DNA of 64,000 nucleotides from Zasmidium citrigriseum (taxonomy: Eukaryota > Ascomycota > Dothideomycetes > Mycosphaerellales > Mycosphaerellaceae). Positions 1 to 53,880 of the stretch are shown piece after piece. The DNA is taken from assembly GCA_002786025.1 (NCBI GenBank), contig NHNW01000028.1, positions 434,001 to 498,000 on the forward strand, written 5' to 3'. A model generated the notes under the pieces. It searched no databases, was not told the DNA's origin, and saw only the letters and a program-made list of their open reading frames with translations. Positions within the stretch are counted from its first letter, which is position 1. Every line of letters starts with the position of its first letter. The position numbers and the translations under genes were made by a program.

Positions 1-122
1 TAATATCGCGCCCTAGGCGGAATACTATAAAGCTTTCGTTATATATTATTGAACCCCGTAGCTAGTAATTCTACACTTCTAATACGATGTTCTAAACCAC
101 ATTTTTCGTCGGCATATTAAAG

Positions 123-1866
123 TACTATAAGAACCTTATATCCGTAATCAAAGTAGCCTTTCTTAAGAAGGTATATATAGTAGTATATAATGTTAGGTAG
201 ATATATTCTAAAGCGATTAAATCGTACGAATCTAACCGAGATATAGTATTAAGCCGAGAACACGCGGCGTTGTCTTACATTTAAGGGCCTTAACTATATC
301 CGTAACGCCTAGCGGACCTTAGATAATCGCTAGATAATATCCTATACTCTTGCCTACTTCTATTCGACTAAGCTATATAAAGTATAATAGTATCGAATCT
401 CCTCGTCTAACCTACTAATCCTCTACTATAGCTCCTTAACTAGGTTCTAAAAGAAGTCGCGTATTACTTCTATTTTTCGAGCCCGCGTGATTCGGAAGAT
501 CCTATCTAACAACTAGCGTATTTATAAACTTTAAGTTAATTACGATCGATAATTATCTATAGGAGCTATTCCGTAAAAGTATATTACTATATAGGATAGG
601 TTATTGTCTCGCTATACGCGTGTAAGGACTTCTGTCTCGACTTCTTTAGCTTCGACTAAGCTAGCGTCTAGCGTATTATAAAGAACAACTACTACGTTAG
701 ACGACCGCCCGCTAACCTCCTAGAATACGTTCGGATCGAAACTTGTACTAAGAATAGAGATCTAGAAGAGCTAGGCATTTAATTTAGATAGATATAGTAG
801 TAGAGTGCTATAGAACTGTCGCGAATATAAGTATAGCGTTCGCGATTAGCTAGGCTATAGAAGCTTACGAGTATATTAAAACGGGGCCACAAGGCCGATA
901 AGTTAACTACGTGAATTCGGCTTATATCGTACTACTCTTAGGAAGTAGAAACGACTATATTCCTAGATTTATATAAGAGAACCTAGTTCTTTAACTCGGA
1001 CTACGAATAGATCCGTAGACTTAGGGCATAGTAGCTAAACTTAAGTTACGCGCTAGTGAACTCTACTCGATAAATCCCTAGCTATAAGCTCCTTATAGGA
1101 TTGTTAGGGATAGGCCGACCTACACCGCGTCGATCGAATTCGATCTATATATTATTACCGTCTAGTATTTAGGAGATCTAAATAGATATAGTTTACTTTT
1201 AGTCTTTTACTATAGATACGATACCTCTACTAATTAACTACTCGTACTCTTGCTCGTCTCGTAACAACTTTAATACTATTATAATTAATACTATAACACT
1301 TACGGCTCTCTATGCTACGGATCGAAGTAAGGCTAACGATAGTCGACGATTTATTCACGATATTAAGTCCGCTATACGCCGTTAGAACTATTACGAGAAG
1401 TCTTTTATAGTTAATATAACTATTTATATTAACAAAGAAACCCTCGACGGCTCTGCTAACTTCTAGAAGGGAGTCGCGGAGGTTATTAACACATATATAG
1501 TTCTTATAGAGGGGAAATTTACTTAGAAAGTTAAGGGTATAGCGAGAGAGAAGTTTGTCTATACCTAAAGCTAACGGACGCTAGATTAGCTTAACGCGTC
1601 GTTAAATCGATACTATAGATTCATAGTCTATATAAGTATAGACGTAGAGACATAGAATATAGTAGTAAGGGAGATATAGCGCACTTCTTATCGAGGCAAG
1701 ATAGAGATTCTTAACTTAACTTCCCTAGATATTAGGGACAAACGAAGGGGTCGCAAGAGATTTCTCTAGGGTCTATTCGAAACGGATAGCTTGAAACAAG
1801 ATAAGACGTGCAATAAATAGGATATTGTCTCTACGAACCTCTACATAGATTACGAAGATTAATAAA
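123..1866 (+). pseudogene. Unidentified protein relic, about 580 codons
   Basis: One frame (codons starting at multiples of 3) can be read from about 123 to 1866. The breaks are almost all TAG or TAA, with one TGA near 912. The text is protein-like throughout: a helical N-terminal half with charged residues and Trp or Gln at stop positions, then a basic segment near 1,730-1,760 reading DIRDKRRGRKRFL. I do not recognise the family. The true start may lie left of the window or near 120. The next relic, the nuclease-like gene, follows on the same strand after about 400 bases. I saw no nucleotide-binding loop that would make it an NLR. Confidence 0.45.
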
Positions 1867-2279
1867 GGGATTTAAATATAGAGTTAATTTAGCATACGGG
1901 GAACGCTATACTATTGTATTAACCTCTTCTTACTTTTCTTAGGCGTTCTTCTAGAAAACACAACGTAGTCTTTATAATCCGATTAGAGCGAGTATATTTC
2001 AACTCTACTAGAGGCCGTGCGATAGAGAAACAGAAGGCACTATCGAAAGCGCGGCGTTCCCTATATACTAAATTAACTCTATAGGTAGCTAGGTAATCTC
2101 TGTATTTACTAACTTTACGTTTTATTTAGAGTACCTAGCTAGAAGGTAATTCTATACCCTTAGCTTACTTAGTTAGTTATTCGGTGTCTACGATAGATAC
2201 GCTAGGGTTACGTTTAATATTTAGTAATTAATACAATATTAGGCGTACGTCTGTTACAGGCGCTGTTAAATCTCTCCTC
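1867..2279. other. Gap between relics, nothing recognised
   Basis: RIP-mutated sequence between two plus-strand relics. I see no convincing reading frame or repeat; it is probably intergenic. Confidence 0.3.
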
Positions 2280-3240
2280 TTAACCTCTCCCTCCTTAATC
2301 TCTCGTTTCAACTTCGCTCTTCTTAAGCCTTTATACCTCTTATCTCTAGTAGCAATAGTGCAGCTTTCTCTAGATAGATACCTTTAAGTACTAATCCTAA
2401 TACCGAGAATAATAATTAGTTAGAATCCGACTACAAGTAGGAAGAAATAGGCTAGAAACTTTTCTCTTACTAACTAGAACTTTATCCTTACTACCTATAC
2501 AAACCTTACGGCTAGATTCGGAAATATAGACGCTAAGGATCGTGTTCGACTATAGTCTTAAATTTCGCCGGAATCTTTTAGCTTTTACCTCGTAATAGAA
2601 GCAGATATAACCTCGCATTTCGACGAGAATATCTTAGTTCCTCTTAGGAAAGCTTTTAGCTCGTTCCCTTTCTTATAGTTCTAGGCCTAGTATCCGCCCT
2701 AGTTAGAGACTAATAATCTAAGTATGTTTATCGACTAGCTAACTTTATACCGTGCTCCTAATAGTACTATACACTATACGATAATAGGCGAGATTAAAAG
2801 ACCTAGAGTTATTAGAAGTAGAGAATAGTAGAAGTTAGAAAGTATCTTAAGCTCTACTTTTAAGCTAGGTAAAGAACTTCTTAGGTATTTTACTAAACTT
2901 AAGTTATATTCCTACGAAAAGCTAACTCGAGCATAGATACGTATTCTACTATAGATCGTAGTAGGTCTTCTATTATAATAGAGCTACGCTACTAATTTTA
3001 AGGTAGACGTGTAACGAACTAAAGGATATTAACTAATCCACCCCTAACTGTTTCGTAATCCCGACTAACGCTAGAAACTAGATAGAAGCTAGCGTCTAGT
3101 AGGCAATGTACCTTGTCGCTAGAGAGGCTTTTTATAGAGTCTATAGGAAGCGTAGTATAGTAGGGCAATCTGTTAGAAGTGCGAGACTCTATTTCGAAGG
3201 ATATTCGGGTAGGCCTGTTTAGCTAATAGGAGAAAAGTAT
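2280..3240 (+). pseudogene. Hypothetical protein with PD-(D/E)XK-nuclease-like motif
   Basis: A single frame (codons at multiples of 3) runs from about 2,280 to 3,240 with only TAA/TAG breaks in the parts I read. The middle reads SFYLVIEADITSHFDEN, and near 2,780 comes IIGEIKRPRVI followed by a Trp/Gln stop position and KLES. A hydrophobic strand ending in E-x-K preceded by an acidic segment is the core of the PD-(D/E)XK nuclease fold, and fungal hypothetical proteins with a similar GE-x-K-R-x-x-x-I-R segment exist. A CxxC pair (CxKC, about 3,170-3,185) follows. The nuclease assignment is an inference from one motif. It could also be a non-catalytic effector domain with the same fold. Confidence 0.4.
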
Positions 3241-4089
3241 ACGTACCCGTATCCCTAAAACTTTAAGAGACAACTTAATATTAAGGGAAGACGATAGTAG
3301 TAGGTTTATTTAAGTTCTAGTATTAGGATAAATAAGTATAGCTTTTAGAGCGATTAGTAACAGTTTACTCTAGCCCTTACCTACTATATAGAGTATTAAA
3401 GTCGTTTATAACATTACGAGTATCCGTAAGATTAATACTCTAATAAGCCTTAATATCGAGGTAGAACTAGGTATGTAAGAAGTTAATAATAATAGCCTCG
3501 TATATTAAAGGAAGGTCCGATCGCGCCTAGGGCGGTAGGAGAAGCCCTTAAGAGAGACTAAGGCGGCTAAGAAGTACGCTAATAACTAAAAAAATTAGTT
3601 TAGGGCTAAGGTATTCTAGAATATCGTATAGGCTAGTCTTCGCAAGATTGTCTAAGTGTCGAGCCTAGCCTATCCTCGCGGCCGCGTATAGGTATCGCTA
3701 TCTAGATATCTTATTAATTATAATGTTCCTATAACTAATATTAGAGGGACTAATAGAATGTTCCGCGATTATATAAAAGTAGTATAGAACGGCTTACCGA
3801 AGGCTTAGTACTAGCTTATATTTAACTTCGTGCGCTATTTTAGCTAAGTCTCTTCCTCCTATATCCTAAATTATAATACTAACACGTCTCTTGTCTAGTG
3901 TATGTACTAATCCATAGTACCTAGGGATTACGTATCCCTAGAGAGACGCTATTCTTTTATATACTCTAATTTCCGTGCCGTAAAGATCGTTAAAGTATAG
4001 CTTAACACAAAAACTTAAAGGTAACCCTATAATACTGTTTCTAATAATATGTCGAGTTAGAAGCGTTAGGGACGTTAACTAGATTCGGA
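3241..4089. other. Gap between relics, nothing recognised
   Basis: RIP-mutated sequence. Short coherent stretches occur, but I could not follow one frame for more than about 100 codons. Confidence 0.25.
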
Positions 4090-4960
4090 ATACTACCGAG
4101 TTTTCTATATATCGTATAGGAGCCTTCGAAATCTAGAGGTAATACTCCTACGAGCTAATAGTAACTCGAAGGTTCTACAAATATTAGAGTAGTATATTAC
4201 TAGAGAGATAGGATAGAGTACTAACCGCTATAGATATACTCTCGTAGGTAAAATCTATAATAGAGCAAGCGCCCTAGCTTACCTAGACTAAAGGCGGGCG
4301 AGTACTCCTTAAGTAAGAGGATAACGCCTAGACGTAGCGGCTCCCCGAGTTTTTATAGGGTTCCCGCGCACCTCGCTTAGTTTTGCGAGACTTATAAGAA
4401 TAACATTCTTCTATAGCGAGAGCTAATACTCGCCCCTCGCTGCCCGAGAGGGTTTTAGATTATACTACGCGAAGAAGCTATCTTCTCCGCTACTACTAAG
4501 TACCTTTGCCGCAATCTTGTATATTCTTCTTATCGCGATGAAACGATATATCTCTAATATATCTAGGTGCACAATTATAGTAGATAGTAACTGTCCTTAT
4601 ACTAAATACTAGCTATTACGTAGAGGACTATACGTATACGAACCCTTCACGGTACGAAGTAAGGTATTTAATTATATAATACTAAGAGACTAGCTTATTA
4701 GACTAAGGCTAGGGCTACTAGCTACTACTAACGCTCGAGACTTTATCTCGTAAGACTACGGTATTCCCGCGATATTATCTATAGGACCGCGTTCCTTAGC
4801 ACTAGAGGTAAAAGCAGCTTTAAAGTTTAATAATACATAGTAGTAATACTTTAACGTACGACTCTAAGTAGGGAAACGTAAGCACTCGCTAATCTTAACA
4901 GGATATTATAAGAACCCTTCTCCTTTACCTCGTCGACTAGCTAGGACTTAGCGAAGCTAG
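4090..4960 (+). pseudogene. Unidentified protein relic in two frames
   Basis: Two plus-strand segments look coding. One (about 4,098-4,490, codons at multiples of 3) is rich in Gln positions now read as TAG, with runs such as SIIEQAP and RVLLK. The second (about 4,490-4,960, a different frame) contains MKRYISNISRCTII, with an ATG at 4,538. The frame change may be an intron or an indel. I recognise no family. The boundaries are uncertain. Confidence 0.3.
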
Positions 4961-7680
4961 CGACTCTCGATTTATAGTATAATACGGCACGAACCTAGGC
5001 GAAACAAGTTTCTAATAAAGAGTAGGAGGAATACGAGTAGATAGTACTACAAGTTAAACATAGTTATAGCGGACTAATAGAGTCTTAGAAAGCTATTATA
5101 CTAAAAGAATCTAAGAACGTACTAGCTATTATAAACAGCTAGCTCGAGCGCGAGGGTATATCCGCTATTTCCTATACTATCTTACGATAGCGAATACTAT
5201 AAGCAGCTCGCTATAAAAAGAAGCGTAAATACTAGGAGGGTATATAATCTTGTCCTATAGAATTACACTCGCTAAAATAGAGTAGGAATAGCGAAGGGTA
5301 GGGGGCCTACCGAGTAAGAGTAGAGACTACTATTAATAGCTATACTCTTAGATCTAGAGTAGGACGGTAGTTAGAGTAAGGCTAATTCGTCCTTATCCTC
5401 TATATCTGCTAGAGGCTAAGAGTAGTTAGTAAGTAAGGAGTGTAGAGTAAGCGACTAGTAGCGAGATATTTAGAAGTAGTATAGTATACTAGACTATTAG
5501 CGAGCTTTCTCTACTTCGGATTATTAGCGCTTATTATCTAGGAGTAGACTATCTTATTAAGTCTACGCGATTCGGAAGCTAACAATTTTTATACGTAGCT
5601 AGTACTTACGTACGCTTAGTAAGCGGTTGGCCGTATACATAGGTAGAAGAAGTAATAACAAAGCTAGGAATCCGTCTTTCCGAATCGTAGGCTTAACTAT
5701 ATTACGTTCTAATACGTTATGCCGTTAATAGTAACGGAACGTGTCTATAACATTTCTAAGCCTACCTAAAAGTTATCCTATATAAGGTCTATAACCTCCT
5801 AGTTACTAGACGTTAGTAGCACCTTATTATATTCGACTAACTATATACTTACTTTATGGGATCTCTCGTCCTTATAAGCCTCCTCTAGCTATTTACGTGT
5901 CCTAGTTAGCTATAACGATAACAGACTATCTAGTACTAACTCGTACACTATCTACTCTTAAAGATATCGAATGCAATCTAGGTACTACTCTAGCTTAAGT
6001 GTTCTAGCCTCCCGCTAGAATTAATCCCTAGAGGAACGAGTATACGAGCAAGTCGCCTTTTTGCAACTATAGTAGCGGAAAGCTAGCGCTTTAACTGCCT
6101 CGACTACGTGCTCGAGGGCTTACTAAAAACAATTATCGATTATTCGCTAAAGCTTAATAATATTAGGACGGATACTATCCTAGCCTCCTATAGGATTACA
6201 AATTTCGTAATATAAGGTTACTTCGTAGATAGCGTATATCGTCGCCGCGGTATATAGGTATAAGCCGTCTCGGAATTAGAGAAGTTACTAATATTTATCT
6301 ACTAGAGACCTCTAAGCCGAAACCGTAAACTTAGGAAAGGTATAAAATCTAGAGTTTTAATACTACGCTAAAGCTAAGCCTTAGAGGTGAAACTCCTAAA
6401 AGGTAGAGTCGAAACATACGAGTATACTATATCTAAGCGACTCTATATCTTAGTACTAGATACTTTCGTAACGAGGCGGTTAGTAATTAATAGTATTGCT
6501 AGTAACCCTTTCGAGTTTACGAACGTAGTTATCGAGGTCCGTAGAGGTTACTTAGTATCTACTTTTCTAGTAGTCGCGATTATCCTAAATTTCTTATAGT
6601 TCCTCGTCCTTGCGAGTAATTAAGGCGAGCGAAGCCTTAGCTCCTTCGCGTAACCTCTAAGAGGAAGCTTTTGTAACCTTAAGTTGTTCCTAGAGCTTTT
6701 TTATCTTAATACAATGTCTTTTTACTATAGATTCTTAAGCGACTTAATGTATCTTAGTCTACTCCTTTTACAATCTAATAAAATCTTCTTCTCGCTCTTA
6801 TTCTATAGCTATTGTATAGTTAGTATACGAGATAACGCACCTTAGGTCCCGTCGTAGGGCCTTTAGGCAAGACTCCTAGCTTAAAGTCTTAGTATTAACT
6901 AGCCGTTTTAATATAGTTAGTAATAATATTATAGCGAGAGGGTAGAGGAAAATCGACGTATTAATAGATAAGTCCTCGAGCAATCTACTACTTCTCTTTA
7001 TCGAAGGCTATACCCCTTAAGAAGTAGCTGTCTACTTAGAGTAAGCTACGAGAATAGTAGACTTTTGTGGGACATGTCGTATATCGGCCTAAATAGACAA
7101 ATATAGTTAAGTAACTAAGTAGCTACATCCCCTACGCTAACGTAGTCTTATTACACATATACTAGATAGGCGCTTACCTATTAGCTATAACGCTACCTTC
7201 TACTTTTAGACCCGCGCCTCGCGAAGCGTTAACCTTGTTTTTATAATCGACTTTAGGCTTACTAGAGCTAGAAATAGAGAAGAATTAACTTTCGTAGGGA
7301 TATATTCCCTATAGTATAGCCGTAATTCTACGAAAGACGGTTCTAGCACTAACTATAGGATAGTACTATATTAAGTAGGATAAGCTGCTACTAAGCCTAA
7401 TCCTAATAGCATGTGTGCACAATCCTTACGGCCGTCTTAGTGTAACAATATAATAACAAGAATAAATAGTCCTATAACGGGCGAATTATTGTCTTCTAAC
7501 TTATTACTCGCGTATTTGCCGCGTTGCCTCTTAACGCTAATCTTTCCCGCTAGAGGCTTACGCGAGAACCTAACGTTTTTGCGTAGTAATGCCCCTTAAG
7601 GTAGTTAGAGGGGAATACTTCGCTTGCTCCTAGGTCTTACTACTTAGGGACTTTACCTTCTTATAAATATAGGACACTCT
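4961..7680. other. 2.7 kb with no gene recognised
   Basis: Strongly RIP-mutated. A 70-codon stretch open on the plus strand at 6,387-6,599 starts with GTG and shows no family resemblance, so I do not call it. The region probably holds further gene relics, but I could not place a frame with confidence. Confidence 0.25.
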
Positions 7681-9330
7681 ATGAAGACAATAGACGAGTT
7701 ACTAGAAGAGCTCTTGTATCGACTATGTAGCTAGTTCGTTCGACGAGAAGACCTTATAACGTTAGTATACGTATCTAAGACTCTATACTATATCGCTACT
7801 AATAAGCTATATAGGTTATTATACTTAGTACTATAGCGTATATAAGAAAATTCTGTCTACACGCGTAGCTATGTATCCGCCTACTTTGCGATACTCTCTC
7901 TATATCTATAGCGAACACTTCGAGTAAAGAAGTTACGGCTAGGATACTCCTAGTTTAAACGAGTACGATAGTAGGCTAGGACAGATCTCTAGACTTAAGC
8001 ACTTCTCTATATCTATAGTAAGGCTTAAGGTCTCCTAAACGTATATAAATATCTAAGCGGATACTATATAGAGGAGCTAGAAACATTCGTTCTACTAATA
8101 TCTTTACTACGTTTAGAGTCTCTTACGCTCGATTTTAGAGGACTCCCTAGAGCAAAAGCATTTCTAGAGAATGCCTATTAAGAAACACTATACTAATAGT
8201 CTATAGTATCGTAAAGACTAGAGTCTAATATCTCTAAGCGGAGAGTCGAAGACGACCTTACTCTCTAGATCTACTAATGTCTAAGCCCTAGAAGATTCTA
8301 TTATCTTATATTTATAAGACTATGTAGACCTTAGTTACTTCGGGGCAAATTTAAAGAGATTAGAAAGGGTCCTAATAACCGCTATACACTAATACTCTTA
8401 TCGTTAATACTAACATTACTAACGATAAAGACGCTAATTCTAGTAAAATAGGATCTTCGCCTACGCGGAGATTATACCTAGCTAAATCTTACTCGTTATA
8501 TCTAGAGGGAGTATAGATATTAGCCTTAGCCTCTTCGAAGGAGCAATATAATAAACTTTATCTCCGAGAAGGCTAAAAGGGACATTAAACAAGTCGTACG
8601 AGATTACTAGAAGTACGAGAGTCGATAATCGCGTATTTATAGGCTCGATTTAATAGATTATATACTTACCCCGCTAGATTATATTCGACTACTAGACTAT
8701 TTCGAGGGACTCGAAGAACTATATAATACCTCAGATACGCGCAATTACTACGTTACCTAGATAGCTAAGATTAATAATTAGCGCTTAATATTATAGTTAT
8801 TACGACATTACCTTCCTATACTAAAGCACTTAACTTCGAATATAGAACACTTAATACAAGCTATAGCCTCGGAATAGTCGCTAACGAAATGTTTCGTTAT
8901 AGCTAATCGCCTAGAATCGCTCCGCTTAACGAGCTTTCTAGGTTCTATTCTCGAAACGTAGGTCGAGCTACTAAAATCTATCTCGACGGTTAGGGTAGGT
9001 AAGTTAGCGACTAAACATTTAGTCTAGTACAAATTGCTAGTTAGGTTCAAGTTTACGAATAAGTATAGAAATAGAGATTATATCTTTCGGAGGAGCTAAG
9101 TAGCTTAACTAGGAAATTAAAGGAAGAGTAACGCTACTACTCCGTAAGCTAGTAACTAATACTTCTACTATACGAACGCCGTTAATTTACGTATTAACGA
9201 TTATCTTAGTTCCTTCGTTGTTCCTAATACGTCTTCGGTAAGCGCCCTACGTCTAAAGCGTCGAATTATTAGAGCCGGAAAGAGCGTATATATTTGTATG
9301 TTCGTCCTAAGGGCGCTTCGCTACCTATAG
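7681..9330 (+). pseudogene. F-box-like protein relic
   Basis: The frame starts at an ATG at 7,681 and can be followed to about 9,330 with only TAG/TAA breaks. The N-terminus reads MKTIDELLEELLYRL, then a segment ending LVYVSKTLYYIATNKLYR. If Leu (CTA) at the E-L-L position was Pro, this is the L-P-x-E-L-L start of an F-box, followed by the usual V-S-K-x-L segment about 30 residues later. F-box proteins recruit substrates to SCF ubiquitin ligases. The rest (about 500 codons) has Leu-rich stretches such as LRLESLTLDFRGLP, compatible with a repeat-type substrate domain. The next relic starts just downstream in another frame. Confidence 0.6.
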
Positions 9331-9361
9331 CCTATAAAGGGATAGGCTACTATAGATAGGG

Positions 9362-12300
9362 TCGATCTCGAAAACTATTCTCTAAAGTTTTTATATACGA
9401 ACTATTATATACCTTTTACTAACGAAGCGCTTTAAGCTATATAGTCGTATTTAAGATTTACTAACTAAGATAAGTAGGTAGCCTATAGGATACCTAATAG
9501 CTAATCTAAGCGATAGCGCTATTCCTAACGAAGACGTGTATATAACTTCTATAGGGCTATATTAAGGCAATATAGAGTTTAATCTAGAAATAAGAATTGT
9601 TTAGTTATAGCTCGACATAATCCGTCTTTAGTAGGATATTAGCTAATTACGAGAGCTAATCTAGTATTCTATAACACCGCTTACTTCGTATAACCTTTAT
9701 GTCGGCGCTAGTAATACTAATTAATAACTCGAATTAGAAGAATTTATAGACAAGTTTGTTAGTAGGGAGTTCTACTAATAATAGGTATATACTTGCTTCT
9801 TAAGTACGTATGAAATTTCTATTACTTTTAGGCTAGATATCTTTCGACTATTTACCGCCTATCTATAATCGTAGCTAAACCGTAGAGACATTAAGCGGAT
9901 CAATTACGACACCCGTAGTAGCTAAGCGTTTAAGAAGGAATAGTTAATAGCTATCTGTCCTATACTAACTAAGCTCTAAGCTTAATCCTCTCGACAATAG
10001 ACGACTATACAAGTCCTAGAGCTATACCTAATAGTATTACTTAGGGACCTACTTAGGCCCGTTATAGGAAGTATATATCTAGACTCTAGTTATATTGTCG
10101 GACCTAGGATATTAGGAGCTAATAGTAGTAGTAGTAGACGGGGCTTATATATTATCGGTACAGAAGGTCTCGATAGCGTAGGAGATATCGTAGTCTAGAC
10201 AGATTAACGTAGTTTATTAGGGACAATCTACTAATAAAGTCGTAGCTTAAGACTAGATCGTAAGGAGGACAATAAGAAAATTTATTATATTAGATACTTT
10301 CTCTTTAATAGTGCCTGTCTCTACTTATTTAACTAGAATACTAGAAGCGAGGCGTCGCTTAGCCTAAAATACATCTTTAACGATCGGCGTAGTTCTAGTC
10401 TAGGTGTACCTTTACTTAGAATATAGTACGGACTATTCCGTAAAAGCTTACGACTAGAATAGCTCTTTAGTACTATTTAGGCTTATAGCGTGTAGTCTAA
10501 AGAGGATACGAACAATAAGCTTTGTAAGGGTGCTAAGTAGAGCAGCTATAAGTCTATCTTTATTCCCCTAAGACTAATAGCTAGTTTCGTATTATTAGTT
10601 CGTTTCGCGTGTACTATAGCGACCTACGTATCTAGACGATCTGTAACAAAGTTCCTTAATTGGTTGTCTAACTAAACAGACGAAGTCTTTCTCTAAGATC
10701 CCTCGGATCAGCTTAAATAGGCCTCCGTATTACTACAAATCGCGTATATTAAGCTTAAAGACGTAATACTGTACCTAGTAGCTTACTTACTAAGTACTAC
10801 AATTCTCGAATAGGATCGTACCTATAAACTAGCTATTACGATTAAAAGATTAGCGCACTTAGTTAATTTCGAAATACTAAGGAGCTAGAATCTAGACGAG
10901 CGGGTGCTTAAGGAACTTGTTCGAGAGGTCTTTTATATCTAGGTCTTAACTAAAGCCGTAGACGAGCGTCGTGCTAGGTTAAGGACGGTTAGTAGAGTAT
11001 TATATAGGTTCTTTAAAGAACACGACATAGAGATAAGAGACATGAATAAAATCCGACGACCGATCTAGTTAGCCTATAGGATACTAAAGGAAGATATAAT
11101 TAATACCTTACTAGACCTATATAGAGTTATAGGAGGCTAAGACGTAGGCGTATACCTATCGTTTCGATAGGGAGTCGTACGAGTTTAACAGCTATTCCTC
11201 GATCCTAACATAAGCGCTCTATCGTCGAATTATAAATTAACATAGCTACTTACTCTAGTTAATAACTTTGCGAGTTTCGACTACAAGTAGCGCCGACTAT
11301 ATATAGCTCGTTATAAGCGTACGGTGCCGTCGCAAATTTAGATATTAGGCAGGTCTACAATTAATAATCTAGCTAATATAGTAAGGTAAACAAGATACGG
11401 AGTTTATTATTAGGCTTAGCTATTATAGACTACGCAAATCTATCTTATGCTTCGCTTAAGTAGAATTATTACTATACTATAGTCTTACTCTAGTAATTAT
11501 AGAACAAAGTCGCGATACTAAGCGACTCTTTACGCGAAGCCCTTTCTACTACTCCTCTACCTTAGATATAGCCCGAATAGCGTTCACGAAGTCTTTACGT
11601 ATCCGTTAATTATAAGTAATGCTCCGAAACTTATAATCCGAAATAATTATATAGTTACGTCCCGGAGCCTCGTACTAGCCCCAACTACTATACTAGACTT
11701 TATAGTTAACTAATAGATCTGCTCTAATCTTTAGCTTTAGAATCTAGAAGTATCGTTTAAGTAGCGGCTTTGTGCTTTCTATTAAGAGCGTTCGGCGGTC
11801 GTATGCTACCTTAAAATACCTTTTACGAGTATTATCTATGTACTAGTAGCTACGGGTTATATCGAAGTTGTCTATAAAGACCTTAGGTATAGGATACGAT
11901 ACGTCGACTGTAATTACTACTCTCGGCTCGAGCACGTACTAGTTAAATATAACTAGTTACTTAGTATAGCTACTATCTTTACAAGTAATACTCTAGGGCT
12001 TAATAGCTAGGATATACACGCGTATTGCTACTTTATAAAGAGTTATACCCTTAGGAGTAAAGAGATAGAAGTTTGTACTCCGTAGCTAGTCTAGTACAGG
12101 AGAGATAAATATCTCTTTATATTCGCTATATAAACTCTTACTAGCCTAGTAGACCTCTAAGCTTAACTCTTTACTAGAGTATTATAGGTATATAGTACCC
12201 CTACTATAGCTAATTGTAACGACTAATCTAGTTATAACGATCGTCTCGAGGACATAATTAAGACGCTCGACAACTAATAGTAGGAGACGAACAATTTAGT

Positions 12301-25830: not shown

Positions 25831-25839
25831 CTAGAGAAT

Positions 25840-43620: not shown

Positions 43621-45040
43621 ACGGACAATCCTTCTTTAAGTTAGATATTCGTAATTCCTCTCTAGTCCTTATAGTCTTTGCTCGTCCTCCTTTATAGTAA
43701 TAGTAGTACTTTCTTACAACTCGAAGATATTAGTAGAATAACTTCTACTTTCTATTTAGTCTTACTTGTTAAGCGTCTCCCGGATTAATTCCTATTGTCT
43801 ACTAGTAATTATCGAGGAATGTCTATCTCGTAACGGGTAAGCCTTAGATTACAGCTTTAAGTATGTTTTGGAACTCTAGGACGACGACTTGTTCTATTAC
43901 GATACGTATTTAAATTGGAACCTATATACGGACATCTTAAGGCTCTTATAAATTATAAAGAGACTTACAAAAGTCTTTTTAACCGGCTCGCGTCTGTACT
44001 AAACAACGTTTAGTAATTAGTTAAGTAATACTAGAAAGTAAACATAAGCCTATACAACGTACTTCTTAAATCCCGTATATACTTTAACTATAGAATTCTA
44101 ATACTACGCTTACGAATAGCCGACCTTATAGCTAGTTATGTATATATAGCAGCAGCTCTAGCTTTTAAAGCTTAAGGACCTAAGTCTATTTATACGGAAG
44201 GCTTCGCCTATCTAGGAGCTTGTCTATATGTATTTTAAAAGCAATAGGCGAGCCTTCTTCTAGATCTTACTAAAGGTAACAAGATTAGTATTAATCGAGG
44301 CTTTATGTAGCACTAGCTTAAGTATATTAAGCTGCTTTTCTATTAACGCTTCGTATCCGTTATCGAGTTAGATACCTTATCCTACTAACTTCGTAAGCTT
44401 AGAATAAAGACGAACGTTACGCTAAGAGACGACTTCGTTAAACATAATCTTCTACTACTCTAGGAATTTCGATATACTAAAGGACCCTTTTTCGCGGGTC
44501 GTTTAACAAAGAACTAAGCTAAATAGCTACAGAAGCGCCTAAGTTACTATATACTACTATTGCGACTCTTCGCCTAGCTAGATCCAAGACTAATAGCCTA
44601 TCTAACGCTAAATAATAGAGATATTTTACCTAGACATTGCTTTAATTTTAAACCCCTTAAGTCGGATATAGTATTATAATTATTGCTTAAGTTGCTATTC
44701 TTCCAGATCTAGTATTTATAACGTTACGCCTAGCTCCGACAAAGTTTCTAGCTAGCTTAAGATCTCCTTCTTAGATATACTACTAGCTCGTATTGCATCG
44801 ATCTATTTATACTAGTTACTATTAGATTACTATTCGAGCGACTATTTACCGTTAGCGAGTACCTAACGTCGAGCTAGATTACCCTCTTACGCTACTATCC
44901 CTAGCCGTTTTAGCCCTTTCAACGGGTTTGGAATCTATCGTACGAGATCTATTCGTATCTATTGTTTGTACTATATCCTACGCTAGAAAAAGCCCTTATA
45001 CTACTACTAATTAACATAAACTACTTAGAGATCGAATCGC
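43621..45040 (+). pseudogene. Unidentified helical protein relic
   Basis: A plus frame (codon starts leaving remainder 1 on division by 3) is clearly coherent from about 43,860 to 45,040 and perhaps from 43,621. Text includes VCFGTLGRRLVLLRYVFKLE, HLKALINYKETYKSLFNRL, LLLDLTKGNKISINRGFM, then EFRYTKGPFFAGRLTKN (about 44,464) and LFILVTIRLLFERLFTVSEY. It is mainly helical and rich in Leu. Breaks are TAG/TAA. No family is recognised. It lies 0.3 kb downstream of the DUF7730-like relic on the same strand. Confidence 0.45.
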
Positions 45041-45419
45041 CGTAAGGGCCGTTTTAGCTCTAAGGTTAAATTAGGCTTATCTTATTATAGCTTGTATGTG
45101 TAGTTTCACGCTAGGGTCTATTTTAAGTTAGTCCTAAAGTATTCTTTCGCGGGCTATAGTCTTAGTTCAAATCTAGTTATAACTACTTACATTTAGACGA
45201 TTGGACGAGTAGCTTCTCTTAAGCTTATAGGAAGGTCTAGTATATACTACTACGCCTATAAGATCTATCGATGCGGTTATAACTACTATCTTCTTAGCGA
45301 TACTATTAAGTATTGTCTAAATAGAATGCTTTCTATATACTTAGTCGAAGTGTAGACGGTAGACATATGTTTAGATTAAATTGTTATATATAGAGGTATC
45401 GGCGAAGATTTATGCGAGG

Positions 45420-47060
45420 AATATAGTAGCGAGGTTCTAGAGTATAAATAGGAGGGTAAGTAGCTTAGTAAGGTTGTATTAATGTTGTTCTAAAGGTATT
45501 ATAGAGGAATTCGATTATTATTACACGGGCGCTAGCGGTTACGAGACTAACGACTATAAGTCCTTAGAGCTTTAGCGATATAAGAGACGGTTCTAATATA
45601 GAGAGGTTAACTTAGCGACATAAGACAGCTACGAAATTATGTATCTAGTTAACGACTTATTATAGTGTCTATACGCCGATTCTACTTCGCCTATGTAGAA
45701 GCGTTTAATAAGATAATATCCCCCTCGTTTAGAAAGGCCTCTATATTCCAAGCGACATTGCACTTAATTAATTATAAGCTTTTCCGCGTAGTACCTATTA
45801 ATAGACTTCGAGAACATAGAAAGACCTATTATTAAGCACGTTTAATGTATACTATTACACTAGTCCGCCGACGAAGCGTCCTATAGACGTATATATAGTT
45901 ACGAGCGTATTAGATAAAGTAGGTACTAGATTATAAAGGTATTAGGCTAAGTTAAGAACAAAAGTATATATACCGCGCGAGCTAAAGAAAAAGTATATTA
46001 ACGACAATTAGTTCTCTAATAGGTTCGAGCGGCGCTAATAGGTCTGCTAGAATTCATTAATCGTAGTATCTATATAGCTAAATAGGTTCTTAGTAGGCTC
46101 CTATATATCCTCCTACTTTACCCGAAAAAGTTCCTTCCTATTATTAGCCTATCTTATTACGGCTACGATCTTGTCGACAAACTAAGAAGGCTGTTTGTCT
46201 ATATTGTTCGAGGTCTCGCTTTTGTCTACTACCTTAACTATACATTTGTAATAATAGCACCTAGAGTTTAGCCGCTTCTAACGTAGTATTTGTCCGCCTC
46301 TATATATTATAGTCTTACGAGGCCGCTTTTCGCGGCGACGATTAGCTTCTTACTCGAGCGCAATCTAGGATTGCTAAATATTTTCGTAGTTAGGAGGAGA
46401 TCGCTAATTCGGCTGTCTACTACTACGGCGTCCGATCCTTACTAGAGACGGACTTGTATTCTAGCGGCCGACTAGATAACGCCTTCTAACGTCGGGATCG
46501 CAGCCTATACTAGTATTTAGTGTTAGTAACGGTAGTGTATAGGACGAAGACGAATACGTCTTAACGTTATTAAGATCTTGCTATTCTATAAGGTCGTTAT
46601 CGGATACGCTAATTTCGGTAGTACCTGTTACTTGTAAGATATTCGCTTAAACCTATGTCGTGTTAGCCCTACCCTCTACTTCTAATGTAGGATACTATAT
46701 ACTTGAAACTTCTAGTTACTCTTAAGCTACGCTCCTAGTAAGCTCTAGTCGCGAAATCGGAGTAAATTAGACAAGACTAGCTATAGTATTAGAAGGCATT
46801 ATTCCTAGCTGTTATATAACGGCGAGTAGAGGGCGGAGCTTTCAACTTATACTTTTAATACCTAGCCGCCTTTACGAATCCTAGCGCTTTATTATATACG
46901 CTAATGCTCTCTTATATATCCTTAGCTATTAACTTTATTAGTAGCGGCTATTAGGCTTGTTAGTAGTGCTGTTTTAGATCGCGGGAGCAAAACTAGCTTT
47001 GCAAAGCGCGACTAAACTTCGTAAGATACTATCTAATAGGATCGTTACCCGATAAGGATC
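45420..47060 (+). pseudogene. Unidentified protein relic, possibly frameshifted
   Basis: The frame at multiples of 3 is coherent from about 45,420 to 46,520: EEFDYYYTGASGYETNDYKS, then IDFENIERPIIKHV, LVLxxVRAALIGLLEFINRS, and a hydrophobic stretch from about 46,190 (LFVYIVRGLAFVYYLNYTF). From about 46,640 to 47,060 a second coherent stretch in another frame reads LAIVLEGIIPSCYITASRG, RLYES and LxIAGAKLALxSATKLRKIL. The two may be one gene with an indel or an intron. No family is recognised. Confidence 0.4.
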
Positions 47061-47840
47061 GAGCTTATAATAGTTCTAAGCTTATCGTTATACGAGCTAG
47101 CGTAGCGCTAGCTCGTAACGCCTATTCTAGACTAAGCGATTAATTCCGTCAAAACGAGTCTTCCCGCCTAATCGCTATAGCTTATAGCTGTTAGCTTTTA
47201 TTAGAAAGCTTAGTTCTACCGATTGCGTTAGCTAGAACGACTAGTGTAACCTTATACCGTTAGTAAGGGCTTCGTACGGATTCGCTAAGCTACTTACTAC
47301 TTATATTAGTAAGAGTCTGCTAAGTAACGATTCGTTTCGTTTACGTCTTCTATAGTAATTGTATATAAAAGATTTAAGAACGCCTATCGTATATAGCGCC
47401 CTAAGTTAACGGAGTCGTAGTTTTAAAAAAGACTACGAAATACTCTCTATAGGATAAGGTATAGGGCTATCTATAGTCCGCGGTAGAGTAGTAGTAACGT
47501 AGCGATAGGAAATCTAGAGCTATTACACTATAACGAGGATTAACGATCTTTGCTATAGTAACTATACTACTTGTATAGCTTGCATTGTTATTTAATCGAT
47601 CTGCTAAGACGTAGCCCTCGTAAACGCTCGCTTATAGGAACAATTAAAACCCTCTATCTATTAGAGGATAGCTCTACCGTACGGTACACGGTATATACTA
47701 AGAGTAGGCTCTAGATTCTCGCTAGGACGTAGCTACTTCGCGGGAACCTAGCTACTACGCGAAATACATAATACTCCTAGCGTCGGCCCTATAGTCTTAG
47801 TAATTACTCTACTTAAGTACTTGTTCTACGTCGAACTATT
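47061..47840. other. Gap with no gene recognised
   Basis: RIP-mutated sequence with no frame followed. An inverted pair tacgagctagcgtagcgcta / gctcgtaacg lies near 47,090-47,120. Confidence 0.25.
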
Positions 47841-48385
47841 ATGTTTTTTGCTTACAACTCTATAGAAATTTTTAGACGCTCTTACTCTAAAATCATACCC
47901 GCTACGTTCGCTAGTATTCGCGATATTAAGTACTATCTCCGCGACATTTATAATTACGATATTACTAGTAAGCGTACCCTTACAACGTAGATATTAGGGC
48001 CCTACGCCTCTATCGTTACTAGCGGGTACGTCTGTCCGTAATCTAGATATAGTCGACTTTTCCCTAGTGTCGCTAAAGCTAAGCGCTACGTACTCGAATT
48101 TTACGAGAGTAGTTTTAAATATATACTATACGGCGATTTGTTAACTACTCTAGAGGTTATTATAAGGTATCTAAAGTATTAGTATACTATCGATCGTCGG
48201 GTTGCGGCCTACTATACCTAGGTAGAAGACGATAAAAAAGCCTAGGAGGATAGTAACGATATTAATAGAAAAGCCGCCTTTAGACATATTACGACTACTA
48301 GCTCTAGCTTTAAGTTTTTTGGAGCACGAAAACATAAAGGACACTACTTTAAGGAGAAGAGGGTAGGGTAGTAGTATATATAGAG
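47841..48385 (+). pseudogene. Small unidentified protein relic, about 180 codons
   Basis: An ATG at 47,841 begins a frame to about 48,385 with few TAG/TAA breaks. It reads MFFAYNSIEIFRRSYSKIIP, ATFASIRDIKYYLRDIYNYD, ILGPYASIVTSGYVC, KRYVLEFYESSFKYILYGDL, then a charged helix (VEDDKKA) and a basic end (FKFFGARKHKGHYFKEKR). It could be an intact-length small gene. No family is recognised. It ends about 110 bases before the MITE. Confidence 0.45.
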
Positions 48386-48486
48386 CAATAGTAGTAGATA
48401 AGTAGACTATAAAGGGGTAGTTAGACTTTGCGGTAGCATAAAGAATAGTAACTAAAATTAGCTTAGAGCAAGACTTATATATATAT

Positions 48487-48494
48487 TATTTCCA
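48487..48494. repeat. Left target-site duplication of the MITE
   Basis: The 8 bases tatttcca abut the left inverted repeat and are repeated exactly at 48,782-48,789. Confidence 0.85.
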
Positions 48495-48781
48495 CGAATT
48501 TGCTAGGGAGCGTCACCCTAATTAACTTTAAATTAGCTTTAAACTAAATTCCTATTAAGTAGGGAATTCTAACCACCCGCCCTCTACTATACCTAGAGCC
48601 TCCTAAGAGATTCTCCCTCCTAGGTAGAGATCCTCCCCCCTAGGTTTACTTCGACGATATAAAGGATTCTTAAATATTAACGCCTCGCCGGCGAGGTAGG
48701 TGTTATCTAAAGTAAAGTAGGTAAATTCAAGTTAAAGTGTTAATTAAGTAGGGGCTAAGGTAACGCTCCCTAGCAAATTCG
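48495..48781. mobile_element. 287-bp MITE with terminal inverted repeats
   Basis: The left end reads cgaatttgctagggagcgtc and the right end is its reverse complement (cgctccctagcaaattcg preceded by gtaa). About 19 terminal bases match exactly and similarity continues more loosely for about 20 more. It is flanked by perfect 8-bp direct repeats (tatttcca). No coding capacity is seen. TIRs with an 8-bp target duplication fit a non-autonomous hAT-type element, but the termini do not begin CAG. CpA is better kept here (tcac, ccacc, tcaa) than around it, perhaps because short repeats escape RIP or because it inserted later. Confidence 0.85.
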
Positions 48782-48789
48782 TATTTCCA
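48782..48789. repeat. Right target-site duplication of the MITE
   Basis: An exact copy of the 8 bases at 48,487-48,494, immediately after the right inverted repeat. Confidence 0.85.
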
Positions 48790-50189
48790 CTATCTTTAAA
48801 TCTTGTCCGTATAGACTATCTCTTTACGAAAAAGCTAGTACCGTAGAGATATAGATTTCTATTACCGTACGTCGAATGCTAAATCTCTCTATAAATAGGT
48901 ACTTGTTTTAACTTAAACAGGCGGACTTATAGTAGAGAAATATATTAGTCTAAGCCTATAGTATAATAGAACGAGTTCCTACTACTTCGAATTAATAGAA
49001 CTTAATAGTATAAATATCTTGCCCTACTCCGAGAGTAGTGTTTACTTAACTAGAAAGCTATACGAGGTAAACGACGTTATAATCCTAATTAGCTATATTG
49101 TTAGTTAATCTACCTTAATAGGTAGGTTAGTCCTTCTTCGTTTCTAGAGGAGTAAGGAACTAAGCTCGTATAGACAGATACTTGCTAGTCTATAGCCTTA
49201 TACTACGTAGGCTTTACAAAGGACTATAGTATCGGGCTCTCTTATGCTTTTAGTACTAGTACTTACTAAAGCTGTTATATTATCTAAGAAGATTTTTATA
49301 TTTAAGCGAATTATATACAGTATCCTAGGATTGTATTGTACGATAAAGGAGATTAATCTATAGAAAAGCTAGCTCTACTCTTTAAGTAAGCTCCGTTCTA
49401 CAAACTTATAGCCTAGTTAATACGACTCCGACCCTTAGGGGAATAAATAATAGAGTTAAGGAACGATTAAACTTGTAAAATAGTAAGCTCTATAAACCTC
49501 TTATCGATATTTAGAGGGAATAAGCCTCTTGCGAGCTAATCCCCTTTCGAAGTCTAAGTAATCTTTAAGCTAAAGTCGATAGGAAAGTAATATAGATAGA
49601 GATAGTATTAAGCCTAGTAATCCGGGTGGGTAACGCGCTACTCTAGGCCGTAGATAAGACGAACTTATACTAGAATAGGCGATTAGTAGAGTAGTATAGA
49701 AAATATCGATCGCTAATACTTTCGCTATATAGGTGTCCCGTAAATTCTTGCCGCGTAGTTTCGTAAGTGCTCGGTATTTTTTAGCTATTTGTCCTTACAT
49801 TTTAGATATAGACAGTAGATACGTACTAAATTGTAGTGCTATAAGTACTAGCGTTACATATATCGCCGTAAGCCGTCGCGACTATAGAAGGTTTTTGTAC
49901 GATTTAATAGCGATAGAGTCTTATCTCCTATATAAAAGATACATTAGGTAGGTAGACATATAATCGGAAATAGGTCTCTATCGACTTTTTTATCGTTAGG
50001 ACACTCGACGCTTCGTCCTTAATAAGCCCTAGTAGTCGACAACTCCTATCTATAGTAGAGTGCCGCTATTGTATTAATAGCTTCTACCCGCCTATAGGCG
50101 TTATCGAAACTCTCTAAGGTAGCAAACGTAAGTAGAGCCTTCGCTACCCGCCGCCGCTTAGGGCTTAAGATAATTTCTAGGCTCTTGTA
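48790..50189. other. 1.4 kb with no gene recognised
   Basis: A 72-codon plus-strand opening at 49,733-49,951 starts with GTG and lacks any family feature. The right edge abuts the C-terminus of the DUF3435 relic. Nothing else was recognised. Confidence 0.3.
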
Positions 50190-50686
50190 CTTTAAGTCTA
50201 GGCTATTATACTTTAAGTTGTTACTTCCGCCGTTAAGCTAGGCTAATATGTCCGCTACTAGCTACTACTCGCTATATTAGCCTTTAATAGCCTCTAGTAT
50301 TAAGGCATATAACTTTCTTAACGCGTAGCGATAGGCCCTCTAGGCCTTAATATACTACTTATGTATACTTGTTCCCTTATAGCGTAAGAGGGTCCTGTAC
50401 TAACTACGGGCCTATATAACTAGTCGATCCTAGTAACGTCGGGCTAGGATAACCTTAGGATATCGAGCGGCTTTCTTTTGCTATTTGTTAGTTAATACTC
50501 GTAGCCGCTTAGGGTTAATAGTCTAGGTTATCCCGCTTATAGCACGTATAACTCCCGTCTATAGTTCGAGGCCGCGATACGCTACTTACGTATCTTATAT
50601 AAGGTAGTACGGGAGGTAATTACGCTTAAACATAGTAGAGGAGGCGTGTCCTATAATAAGATTGCGTTAGGCGGCACTAATATAGC

Positions 50687-50735
50687 CTATACGGAGTTAG
50701 CTATATTTCTTACTATACGGCGGCTATAGACTTAC
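50687..50735 (-). other. Intron 2 of the DUF3435 gene
   Basis: On the minus strand it starts GTAAGT (50,735), contains GCTAACT and ends TATAG (50,687), 49 bases. Its removal joins A-L-D-S-S-C to Y-I-S-A-A and R-N-L-I-I-G-H in frame. Confidence 0.8.
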
Positions 50736-51106
50736 AGCTACTATCTAGCGCCTCGCCGTAACTACGATAGAAGCAATACGGCTTAACCTTAGGCTCGAAG
50801 CCTATAATCTGCTCGACTCGGCTTAGGCGCTTACGAAACTAACTAATTGTAACTAGTTTATACGAGATATTAACGCCGTTAATAGTCCGCTCTGTCTTAC
50901 GAAATACCGGGAGCTCGCTTTTGCTTAGTTTAATAGGGATTACAAGCTAGCGCCTATAGGGCAGGATCTTTAAAGAGAGCAGTTTTTCTAGCGTGAAATC
51001 TAGTACTATAAAAGCGTTATTAGCGAACATTAGAGCGAGAAGCGTCGTCTATAGGCAGAGTAAGAGACATGGTTCGCGAGGCACGTCTAGGATAGGAAAA
51101 GTATTA

Positions 51107-51159
51107 CTACGCGACCTATTAGTAATACGTAGCGCGGATAAGTGCTTATAAAGACTTAC
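51107..51159 (-). other. Intron 1 of the DUF3435 gene
   Basis: On the minus strand it starts GTAAGT (51,159), has ACTAAT branch-like sequence and ends GTAG (51,107), 53 bases. Its removal joins K-D-P to N-T-F-P-I and restores the family reading frame. Confidence 0.8.
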
Positions 51160-51910
51160 GGATCCTTATCTCTACGATATAATTTAGTGTACTTAAAGGT
51201 AAAGTCTATGTTAAGTCTCGAGCGGTTACTTCCTACGGCCTCTAGTAATAAGGTAACCTTTACGTGTTTGTAACGTAGTTAGCGGAGAGCCGCTAGGCGG
51301 TTCCTAGTAATACTAGCTAACTGCGTTATTAGTACTAGCTACGCTTAGAAACGTTTATAGCGTAGGCCTGCCTCGGGCGACTACTATAGCGTTTTTAGCA
51401 ACTCGAAGGCGTCCTCTACCCTTATTATATATTTCTCTACTAGCTCCGAGGAGAGTTTAAACTTAACGGCGAGATTTTGCCGTACTCTAGATATCTTGTC
51501 TTTTATTTCGGGCGAGACGTAGTATAACGTTTCCTATTAGCGAAGCATCGTAAGCGTATTCTAGTATATCTAGATAGTCTGTTCTTTGTAGATACTTCCG
51601 CGTTAAACTTCTAGTATCTAGTCGAAGAAATCGCGTATATTATCGACTAAGAAGGACTATAGCGTATTAATTAGCTCTTTCTCGAACTCGGCGTAGTAAC
51701 TATTTATCTAGGTCCTTTAGCTCTTGTACTAGCTAGCTCGAGGGCTCTCTTCTACTTACGATTCCTAGAGCTTTCGAACTCGTTATAGTAGGTCTATACT
51801 CGCTAGAGCGAATATTTTCTTACTACTAACGTAGTTATATTCGCCCTCCGTGCTTATATAAAGCGTCGCCCTCGCCTCTAGATAACTGTCGTAGGCTAGC
51901 TAGGACATAT

Positions 51911-52821
51911 TAGTAGATAGGACGCTATAGCCGTTTGAAATTAAGTACGGCGCGTAGAAGGGAGGAGGTAAGAGGTAGAAGTAAAGAAGGGAGGTAAAGA
52001 CGGGGGTTTCCGTATACTATCTATCTTTTATGTTCTAGGCGGCGACGTAGAGTAAAAGCGATACGCTTATATACGCGCGCGTAGTCGAGTTAAGTAGGCG
52101 CGGGGGAGGCGCGCTAAGAAAGGATAGAAAGCGCCCTAATTTATAGCTATTTCCGTCCGAATCTAGACGCAATTTTGCTGTTAATTAGTTATATTCTATA
52201 AAGTTTACGCTAGTATTAAAGTTAATATTAGCGCGACTATTGAACTAAGGATTACGGACTAGAGGATAAGCTTAGTTAGTAGAGTTATTAAAGGCGGTTA
52301 TAGTAGATAAAGATAGATAGCCTATACTAGATAGGAAGCTAGGAATATTACGATTCTAGGCCTCTAAAAGAGTCTAGCACTAGCGTAAGTCGATAATATT
52401 AGAGTTAACTAGAGCTCTATACATATTCTTAAGGAACTAGGCTAGCTACTAATTACTTATTTACGCTACTATAATAAGCTAAACTAAAGTTAGTATCTAA
52501 AGTTAAGTTCTAGAGATCTAGGTATCTAGTATACTATAGAGCGACTTACTAAAGAGTTTTCTAATAATTTAGAAGGCTTAGAGGTGTGTTAGATAATATA
52601 GATAGTAGATGTTAGTAAGAAAGTAGTATTAGATATTGTTGTTTAGTAGAAGGTTTAAACTAGAAGAAAGAGGTCCTTTTAAGCACTTCTAAATTAGGGT
52701 CTAGTTACAATAGACAGTCTTATATAATTAATAGATTATATAGACTGCTTCTAATAACTCCTATAGGTTAATAAGGGTATGTAGTAGCTAACTAAAGCTA
52801 AATATATACCTAAGGGGGAGT
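51911..52821. other. Sequence upstream of the captain, including a Copia internal remnant
   Basis: From 51,911 to about 52,200 is the presumed 5' region of the DUF3435 gene. From about 52,260 the sequence becomes poorer in CpG and richer in tag/cta. It ends in the purine tract aagggggag at 52,813-52,821, directly before an LTR-like segment, so this is probably the 3' end of a Copia-like element's internal region. No reverse-transcriptase motif was seen. Confidence 0.4.
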
Positions 52822-52957
52822 ATTATAATAGGGTAGTTACATAACTTATACTAAGGCTATATATATTAAACTCTAATTTTACACTATAGATAGAACTCCT
52901 CTAAACTATATATTTATATAGGTTAATAAATAATAGTCTCGTTTTAAGATTATAACA
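52822..52957 (+). mobile_element. LTR of a Copia-like retrotransposon (136 bp)
   Basis: It starts tattataat and ends attataaca. If the first dinucleotide was TG before RIP, the ends are perfect inverted repeats of the TG...CA type. A polypurine tract (aagggggag) immediately precedes it, which marks it as the 3' LTR of a plus-oriented element. No second LTR copy was found in the window, so the element is probably truncated. Confidence 0.65.
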
Positions 52958-53880
52958 AGTATAAAGCCTTTTTAAGCTATACTAGGGACTCCGAATACGA
53001 GTAGTATAGCGTAGTTGTTAGCGTAGTATCGAGAGGATCTTAGGCTTAAGACTATAACTACTATTTGGGTTTAGGATAAGAGCGGACTAGAGAATTAGGA
53101 TATAGGGATTTTATTAGGGATAGTAGTATATATTAGGGAGGTCGATTAGGACTAATAGGTTTAACCGTTAGATAGTACTCTAGTAGAGCGGAAGTCTAAG
53201 TGTAATATCGCTAACTAGATAATTAGATTATCTCTAGTAGCTAAGATAAGTAGGGTTTTCTTTCTTCTCGTAGACATATAATATTATTAAGACAGAGCGC
53301 GAAAGCTTCCGTAGCTTAAAACTCTTCCCCGCTTCCTTAGCTTTTAAAACATTACCTTAAATGTCGATTTCTATAGCGATTACACTACTACTAATATACC
53401 TAATAATATCTATATATACCTAACGTTAGGATATTATTTTTCTTAATTAGTATTATATGTTAGAACTTAAAATATTAGCCTCTACGCGGGTATAACTACG
53501 ATTTACTACGAGTAAACATTACAAATTCTAGGTAAATATATAACAATTTATTCTTAGGAAGATAATAACTTACTAATCCTACTTATAGTATACCCGTAGT
53601 AGTACTCGAGACTATTAGATTACGTTCTTCCTACTATACTATATCCTTTACTACCTTACTACCTTACTATCGCGCCGTCGCGCCGTCGCCGCCGCTAGCT
53701 CTACTAACGAAGCCGCCTACGCCCTACCTATAACTTAGTAGTAGTATACCTAAAGTAGACAATACTACGCCCTTCAATTAATCTTTCCGAATAGTAAGAT
53801 TAGATAGCCGAGTAGGCTACTACTAGTATACCTTATATCGTTATTCTTAACGCCTTATATTAAAGGGGTGTAATAGTCTC
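52958..53880. other. Transition zone to the second RIP block
   Basis: Up to about 53,550 some CpA/TpG remains. After that almost none is seen to the end of the window. No gene was recognised. The edge of the Starship-like element may lie here or between 51.95 and 52.26 kb. Confidence 0.4.

What the first reader, a model, noticed from the sequence alone, without database searches (positions are those of the whole stretch)
1..53550. Decayed Starship: DUF3435 captain plus DUF3723, ferric reductase and patatin cargo
Four hallmark Starship gene families lie together within 29 kb (23.2-51.9 kb), and the DUF3435 recombinase sits at one edge, transcribed toward the others. Each family call rests on several conserved stretches read directly through RIP stops. 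Starships are known giant cargo transposons of Pezizomycotina. Inferred: the captain end is near 52-53.5 kb and the other end lies left of base 1, giving an element longer than 50 kb. Finding a Starship inactivated by RIP with its gene order still readable is of evolutionary interest.
Basis: partly seen in the sequence, partly recalled or inferred. Interest (0 to 1): 0.95.

Follow-up and report, generated by a model that had tools for sequence, protein, structure and literature searches.

The report
Mutation-killed Starship inside a retrotransposon
A 73-thousand-base fungal "Starship" jumping element landed inside a smaller jumping element and was then riddled with mutations by the fungus's own repeat defence; both ends can still be read because an uninterrupted copy of the smaller element sits elsewhere in the same genome.

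Summary
The window holds 72% of one inactivated Starship, and both ends were found: contig C70:413,290-486,203 (72,914 bp; window -20,710 to 52,203). It splits a Ty1/Copia retrotransposon whose copy on contig C57 lacks the insertion and serves as empty site; one TATAAAG there is present at both edges on C70. A DUF3435 captain lies just inside the right edge, reading inward. DUF3723 and patatin pieces are confirmed, ferric reductase more weakly; DUF7492, DUF7730 and a protein kinase piece are added. All nine gene stretches counted carry in-frame TAA/TAG stops. RIP is even over 73 kb and stops at the Copia's left border. In the 60% of the ship searched (43.9 of 72.9 kb) no second copy was found, which fits a partner copy present when RIP acted and later lost. 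The two Copia copies differ by 323 transitions but only 5 transversions in 6,638 bp, so the ship landed and died relatively recently. New member of a known kind: RIP-hit Starships are in print. Host, judged from one gene: a Dothideomycete near Zasmidium.

The parts
1..52203 (-). Part of the Starship inside the window; the whole is C70:413290-486203 (window -20710 to 52203), 72,914 bp; strand given as that of the captain
   Evidence: Empty-site comparison with C57
49767..51698 (-). Captain: DUF3435 tyrosine recombinase, broken by stops; matched stretches lie in two frames
   Evidence: PF11917; tblastn with P0002, residues 77-696 of 812; 38 in-frame stops in the three aligned stretches (two overlap by 15 residues), 20 of 38 facing Q or W
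52197..52203 (.). Right (captain-side) copy of the 7-bp direct repeat TATAAAG; the left copy is C70:413283-413289 (window -20717 to -20711), the single copy at the empty site is C57:462341-462347
30647..32210 (-). DUF3723 gene remnant (35 in-frame TAA/TAG in the two matched stretches)
   Evidence: PF12520 E 4.6e-54 and 5.9e-30; stops
23152..24600 (+). Ferric reductase remnant: hydrophobic stretch, FAD_binding_8 at 23983-24345, NAD-binding-like stretch about 24316-24440
   Evidence: PF08022 at threshold, tblastn and shuffles, reading of the frame
33778..34131 (+). Patatin-like gene remnant; full extent not fixed (same low-stop frame 31711-34062)
   Evidence: tblastn with patatin frames of the same genome, 53.1 bits against at most 27.7 in 20 shuffles; frame
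16718..17284 (+). DUF7492 gene remnant (cargo)
   Evidence: PF24320 E 8.9e-25
42356..42850 (+). DUF7730 gene remnant (cargo)
   Evidence: PF24864 E 1.3e-8, E 1.3e-7 in a longer translation
52204..52957 (+). 3' end of the interrupted Ty1/Copia retrotransposon with its 3' LTR; the 5' part is C70:about 406,798-413,289 (window -27202 to -20711), reverse transcriptase at C70:410290-410721
   Evidence: C70:486190-486957 is 94.3% identical to C57:462334-463100; RVT_2 PF07727 E 1.5e-13

Best explanation
This is one Starship, 72,914 bp, of the kind moved by its DUF3435 tyrosine recombinase. It integrated into the 3' part of a Ty1/Copia LTR retrotransposon at TATAAAG, leaving that 7-mer at both edges (shown). 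The fungus's repeat-induced point mutation then turned most CpA/TpG into TpA over the whole ship, putting stops into the captain and the cargo genes counted, so it can no longer move itself (shown for the sequence, inferred for the function). RIP needs a homologous partner (established knowledge). The ship is evenly hit over 73 kb while the gene-rich DNA just left of the Copia is untouched, so a second full-length copy was most likely present when RIP acted and has since been lost, for example by segregation at meiosis (inferred). The confidence below is for insertion, membership and death by RIP; the lost-partner step alone is about 0.8.
For: C57 holds the Copia uninterrupted; its bases 462,334-462,347 match both edges on C70, and the exact junctions share TATAAAG. 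The captain is the first recognised gene at the right edge and reads inward. DUF3723, patatin and, more weakly, ferric reductase lie inside. Nine gene stretches counted hold 3 to 26 in-frame TAA/TAG each. Residual RIP substrate is 0.232 +/- 0.025 in 24 windows of 3 kb, and no 500-bp window exceeds 0.5; no trend with distance from the nearest edge (Spearman 0.07, p 0.57, 72 windows of 1 kb). The 1.5-kb flanks of the C57 Copia are unmutated (1.11 and 1.07), as is the C70 left flank up to the Copia. Five 9-kb queries, 7.2 kb of one inside the ship, plus 711 bp of a sixth (43.9 of 72.9 kb of the ship) show no second copy. The genome has three loci with C5 DNA methyltransferase domains, compatible with a RIP machinery.
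Against: The empty site is another copy of the retrotransposon, not the same locus in another strain. No terminal inverted repeat stood out. The ferric reductase call is near threshold and two of its tests failed. The absence of TGA from the nine stretches is no independent evidence, since TGA is rare in all six frames of the window (10-24 per frame); 18 of the 38 captain stops face a residue other than Q or W, or a gap. The other 40% of the ship was not searched for a second copy, and one 20-kb query could not be scored. The missing partner is inferred. C70 ends 20.5 kb beyond the ship inside repeats, and the Copia's right target duplication is missing there, so the right flank has been rearranged.
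Confidence: 0.93

Rival explanations
1. A graveyard of unrelated repeats and decayed genes next to a DUF3435 gene, not one insertion.
For: The block runs to the contig end and is AT-rich throughout; beyond 53 kb it is other repeats.
Against: The two halves of one Copia meet exactly at a shared 7-mer across 72.9 kb. RIP level is uniform inside and different beyond 54 kb. Four of five 9-kb interior queries match C70 alone, and the fifth has, within its ship part, only a short repeat (up to 292 bp) elsewhere.
Confidence: 0.03
2. The ship was never duplicated; RIP entered it as the unpaired linker between the two Copia halves, which pair with the C57 copy.
For: No second copy in the 60% searched. 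RIP of a single-copy 729-bp linker between repeats, dependent on DIM-2, is reported in Neurospora (PMC11969663, passages seen). Residual RIP level in the left Copia part on C70 (0.247) is close to that in the ship (0.231).
Against: No decay with distance from the edges over 73 kb; RIP does not spread into the flanks of the C57 Copia or into the C70 left flank.
Confidence: 0.06
3. The ship was already mutated when it arrived and was moved in trans by another captain.
For: No other DUF3435 match over the cut-off remains in the genome (the weak hit L004 has no Pfam family and no match of note to P0002), so a helper could have been lost.
Against: Needs an extra helper; the similar residual RIP level in ship and split Copia is simpler if both were hit after insertion.
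Confidence: 0.05

Closest known systems
Starship superfamily (founding papers recalled, not held; used here through passages of PMC12153272, PMC12506042 and PMC12134995)
   Same: DUF3435 captain at the 5' edge reading inward, short direct repeats (2-12 bp in 19 of 20 A. fumigatus Starships, PMC12153272; 6 bp in Sanctuary, PMC12506042), DUF3723, FRE and PLP accessory genes (PMC12506042), size within about 20-700 kb (PMC12153272)
   Different: Fully inactivated; the empty site is a paralogous retrotransposon copy; no terminal inverted repeat seen
Element-wide RIP-hit Starship of Gaeumannomyces tritici type A (PMC11905480, passages seen)
   Same: Single Starship under 100 kb with RIP along its whole length
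   Different: There mean CRI is 0.2-0.3 and the element is gene-poor; here CRI is 1.4-2.1 in the 2-kb bins of the window part of the ship and accessory gene families can still be named
Ty1/Copia LTR retrotransposon (the target)
   Same: RVT_2 domain, LTR-like direct repeats aligning over 123 bp, 5-bp CGGAG target duplication at the C57 copy
   Different: The C70 copy is split by the Starship and lacks its right target duplication

Membership tests
Starship | DUF3435 tyrosine recombinase as first gene at one edge, transcribed into the element | tested here: met
   PF11917 over cut-off; the first captain base recovered, 51,698, is 505 bp from the edge at 52,203, with 76 N-terminal residues of the guide protein unplaced
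Starship | Discrete insertion with an empty site | tested here: met
   C57 paralogous empty site; no orthologous locus of another strain could be tested
Starship | Short direct repeats at both edges | tested here: met
   TATAAAG, 7 bp, once at the empty site and twice around the ship; the same 7-mer occurs 37 times inside the ship, so it is the position, not the word, that counts
Starship | Large size with accessory cargo (DUF3723, FRE, PLP) | tested here: met
   72,914 bp; FRE near threshold
Starship | Terminal inverted repeats (common, not universal) | tested here: inconclusive
   None stood out between the end 400-bp pieces; 18 of 20 A. fumigatus Starships have them (PMC12153272); RIP may hide them
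Starship | Same element at different sites in different strains (mobility) | not testable with these tools
   One genome held
Starship | Working captain | tested here: not met
   38 in-frame stops in the aligned captain stretches: a dead member; not a condition of membership
Starship | Captain family (Prometheus, Hephaestus, Enterprise and so on) | not tested
   No reference captain set at hand; nearest protein found is P0002 of Recurvomyces mirabilis, 59% over 84% of a 147-aa region
Ty1/Copia (target element) | RVT_2 reverse transcriptase between direct LTRs | tested here: met

The most novel reading that the evidence does not exclude
RIP can erase a single-copy giant transposon without any second copy of it: landing inside a repeat makes the 73-kb ship the unpaired linker between two paired repeat halves, and RIP runs evenly through all of it. 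Insertion into retrotransposons would then be a death trap for Starships.
Probability: 0.06. Interest if true: 0.75.

Novelty: new member of a known kind. Interest (0 to 1): 0.45.

Why it matters
It gives a complete, base-exact Starship corpse in a group of fungi for which one search (Starship, Mycosphaerellaceae, transposon) listed only two papers, neither of them about a Starship of that family as far as the starts of their abstracts, and passages of one, show. It also makes a question testable: how fast does a RIP-competent genome kill a Starship? The Copia that it entered has only 5 transversions against its sister copy in 6,638 aligned bp, so arrival, mutation and (if the main reading holds) gain and loss of a partner copy fit into the time those allow. 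A single copy with even, heavy RIP could serve as a footprint of past duplication, a way to count Starship bursts that no longer show in copy number.

Tried and rejected
Rejected: a left end inside the window (RIP and GC do not change there; the left end is outside). The idea that the 6.6-kb repeat on C57 is a shrunken Starship holding both ends (RVT_2, LTRs and target duplication show a Copia). A second captain at C116 (L004: no Pfam family, no match of note to P0002). TGA-free runs as a coding signal (TGA is rare in all frames). A profile of 60 of the 120 listed homologues of one own reductase (nothing significant). Pfam scans of low-stop frames: 10, none matched; 10, four families' worth of matches in four frames (PF08022, DUF3723 in two, DUF7730); 10, DUF7492 in two overlapping frames; 10 left of the window, one kinase. 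Six frames of 12.0-16.5 kb: nothing. Six frames of 36.0-50.0 kb: DUF7730 only. Three plus frames each of 33.0-36.3 and 21.5-26.3 kb: PF08022 only. The rest of the window was not scanned in all six frames. The captain searches found one protein each. Papers: passages of PMC12289983, PMC12134995, PMC11905480, PMC12506042 (and its section 9 in full), PMC12153272, PMC11969663 and PMC13041039; other papers as search listings only. PMC12289983 reports that most TEs in Verticillium Starship regions show no RIP, a contrast to this case. Three founding Starship papers are not held.
Full report
What was claimed.

Setting. The window is C70:434,001-498,000 of a 44.4-Mb genome in 148 contigs; C70 is 506,663 bp long. 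For one intact ferric reductase of this genome the nearest named relative is from Zasmidium cellare (88%), then Dothistroma septosporum (68%) and Pseudocercospora fuligena (69%). From this single gene the host is taken as a Dothideomycete near Zasmidium. A RIP-hit block runs from about C70:407,000 to the contig end; the 73 kb examined to its left have GC about 0.48-0.58 and normal dinucleotides. The genome has three loci with C5 DNA methyltransferase domains.

Genes. The captain matches PF11917 in three stretches (two frames, minus strand) over profile positions 1-417 of 418. A tblastn with R. mirabilis protein P0002 covers its residues 77-696 of 812 in window 51,698-49,767. The aligned stretches hold 38 in-frame stops, 20 of them facing Q or W, 17 facing other residues and one a gap; Q and W codons are what C-to-T change turns into TAA/TAG. 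DUF3723 is strong and matches nowhere else in the genome. Patatin is missed by Pfam but found by 2 of 8 patatin frames of the same genome at up to 53.1 bits (20 shuffles at most 27.7). Ferric reductase is the weakest: PF08022 just over its cut-off in one translation and just under in two, tblastn pieces of 29.3 and 30.0 bits against at most 26.9 in 20 shuffles, and a long plus frame with hydrophobic stretches and an ATGIGI-like motif (motif recalled); PF08030 and a profile of homologues of one own reductase did not find it. Further cargo: DUF7492, DUF7730 and, left of the window, a protein kinase piece at C70:426,072-426,407, E 1.7e-8. The nine stretches counted hold TAA and TAG stops and no TGA, but TGA is rare in every frame of the window, so its absence adds little.

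Ends. A DNA search with window 45,000-54,000 found C57:462,334-463,100 at 94%. A search with the left border of the block found C57:456,453-460,421 and 460,411-462,347 at 95%. C57 therefore carries, without interruption, what on C70 lies on both sides of a 72.9-kb gap. The junctions read: C57 ...ATATATAGTATAAAG-TTTACGTTAG...; C70 left ...GTATAAAG-GTATGAACGG...; C70 right ...TTCTATAAAG-TTTACGCTAG.... The shared direct repeat is TATAAAG, 7 bp. The element, counted with its right repeat, is C70:413,290-486,203. No terminal inverted repeat stood out.

Target. The split element has a Ty1/Copia reverse transcriptase (PF07727, E 1.5e-13) and direct terminal repeats that align over 123 bp at 84% in the C57 copy, which is flanked by CGGAG on both sides. 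On C70 CGGAG is seen on the left only, so the right border was probably rearranged later. The C57 copy lacks about 600 bp that C70 has.

RIP. The residual substrate index is 0.231 for the ship as a whole and 0.232 +/- 0.025 over 24 windows of 3 kb, with no 500-bp window above 0.5 and no trend with distance from the edges. It is 0.247 in the left Copia part on C70 and 0.032 in the block 488-506.7 kb. The 1.5-kb flanks of the C57 Copia are normal (1.11 and 1.07), so RIP there keeps to the repeat. Yet in the 43.9 of 72.9 kb searched the ship has no second copy; a stretch near window 48.5-48.8 kb has relatives of at most 292 bp elsewhere. An even, full-length RIP pattern in a ship without a second copy is best read as the footprint of a lost full-length partner; this step is inference.

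Relative date. The two Copia copies differ at 328 of 6,638 aligned positions; 323 are transitions, of the RIP type in one direction or the other, and 5 are transversions. The ship entered the C70 copy after that copy was made, so it is younger than those 5 transversions allow. No absolute date is claimed, since no rate was measured.

Comparison. Captain at the edge, direct repeats of 2-12 bp, size and accessory families fit Starships as described in PMC12153272 and PMC12506042 (passages seen; section 9 of the latter). [quoted passage not shown] PMC11905480 reports element-wide RIP in Gaeumannomyces (passage), and PMC12153272 says that RIP can degrade multi-copy Starships (passage). Thus neither the kind nor its fate is new. 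What this case adds: exact ends by an in-genome empty site, very strong RIP with gene families still readable, and a relative upper limit on its age. Papers were searched.

Verdict.

Noticed in passing
window 54,000-64,000 and L023: Different repeats up to the contig end with RIP nearly complete (index 0.032). Window 53,290-54,000 has matches of 71-93% on five other contigs over about 700 bp; 59,431-60,042 is a 300-bp direct repeat (98%, spacing 312 bp). No telomere-like repeat in the last 8.7 kb of the contig.
   Followed up: partly
window 14,599-15,132: Tandem repeat of about 93 bp inside the ship; on the minus strand it reads as N/G-rich units of about 31 residues (GVYNPNNRGRETSKRLGSLGLGSTNNGRVG-like). 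No Pfam family.
   Followed up: partly
window about 48,495-48,778: Short stretch inside the ship with relatives of up to 292 bp at 68-82% on eight other contigs: a small dispersed repeat or a gene-family exon.
   Followed up: no
C57:456,440-463,130 and C70:406,780-406,830: Both Copia copies sit right after GGACGGAG, which hints at a target preference; about the first 55 bp of the 5' LTR look unmutated in both copies although the rest is heavily RIP-hit.
   Followed up: no
C57:456,453-463,100 against C70: The C57 Copia is more heavily mutated than the C70 copy and has also lost CpG, CpC and CpT cytosines (87, 43 and 30 sites kept only by C70), so RIP here is not confined to CpA.
   Followed up: partly
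G000:C71, C57, C66: Three loci with C5 DNA methyltransferase domains, candidates for RIP and methylation enzymes; not assigned.
   Followed up: no
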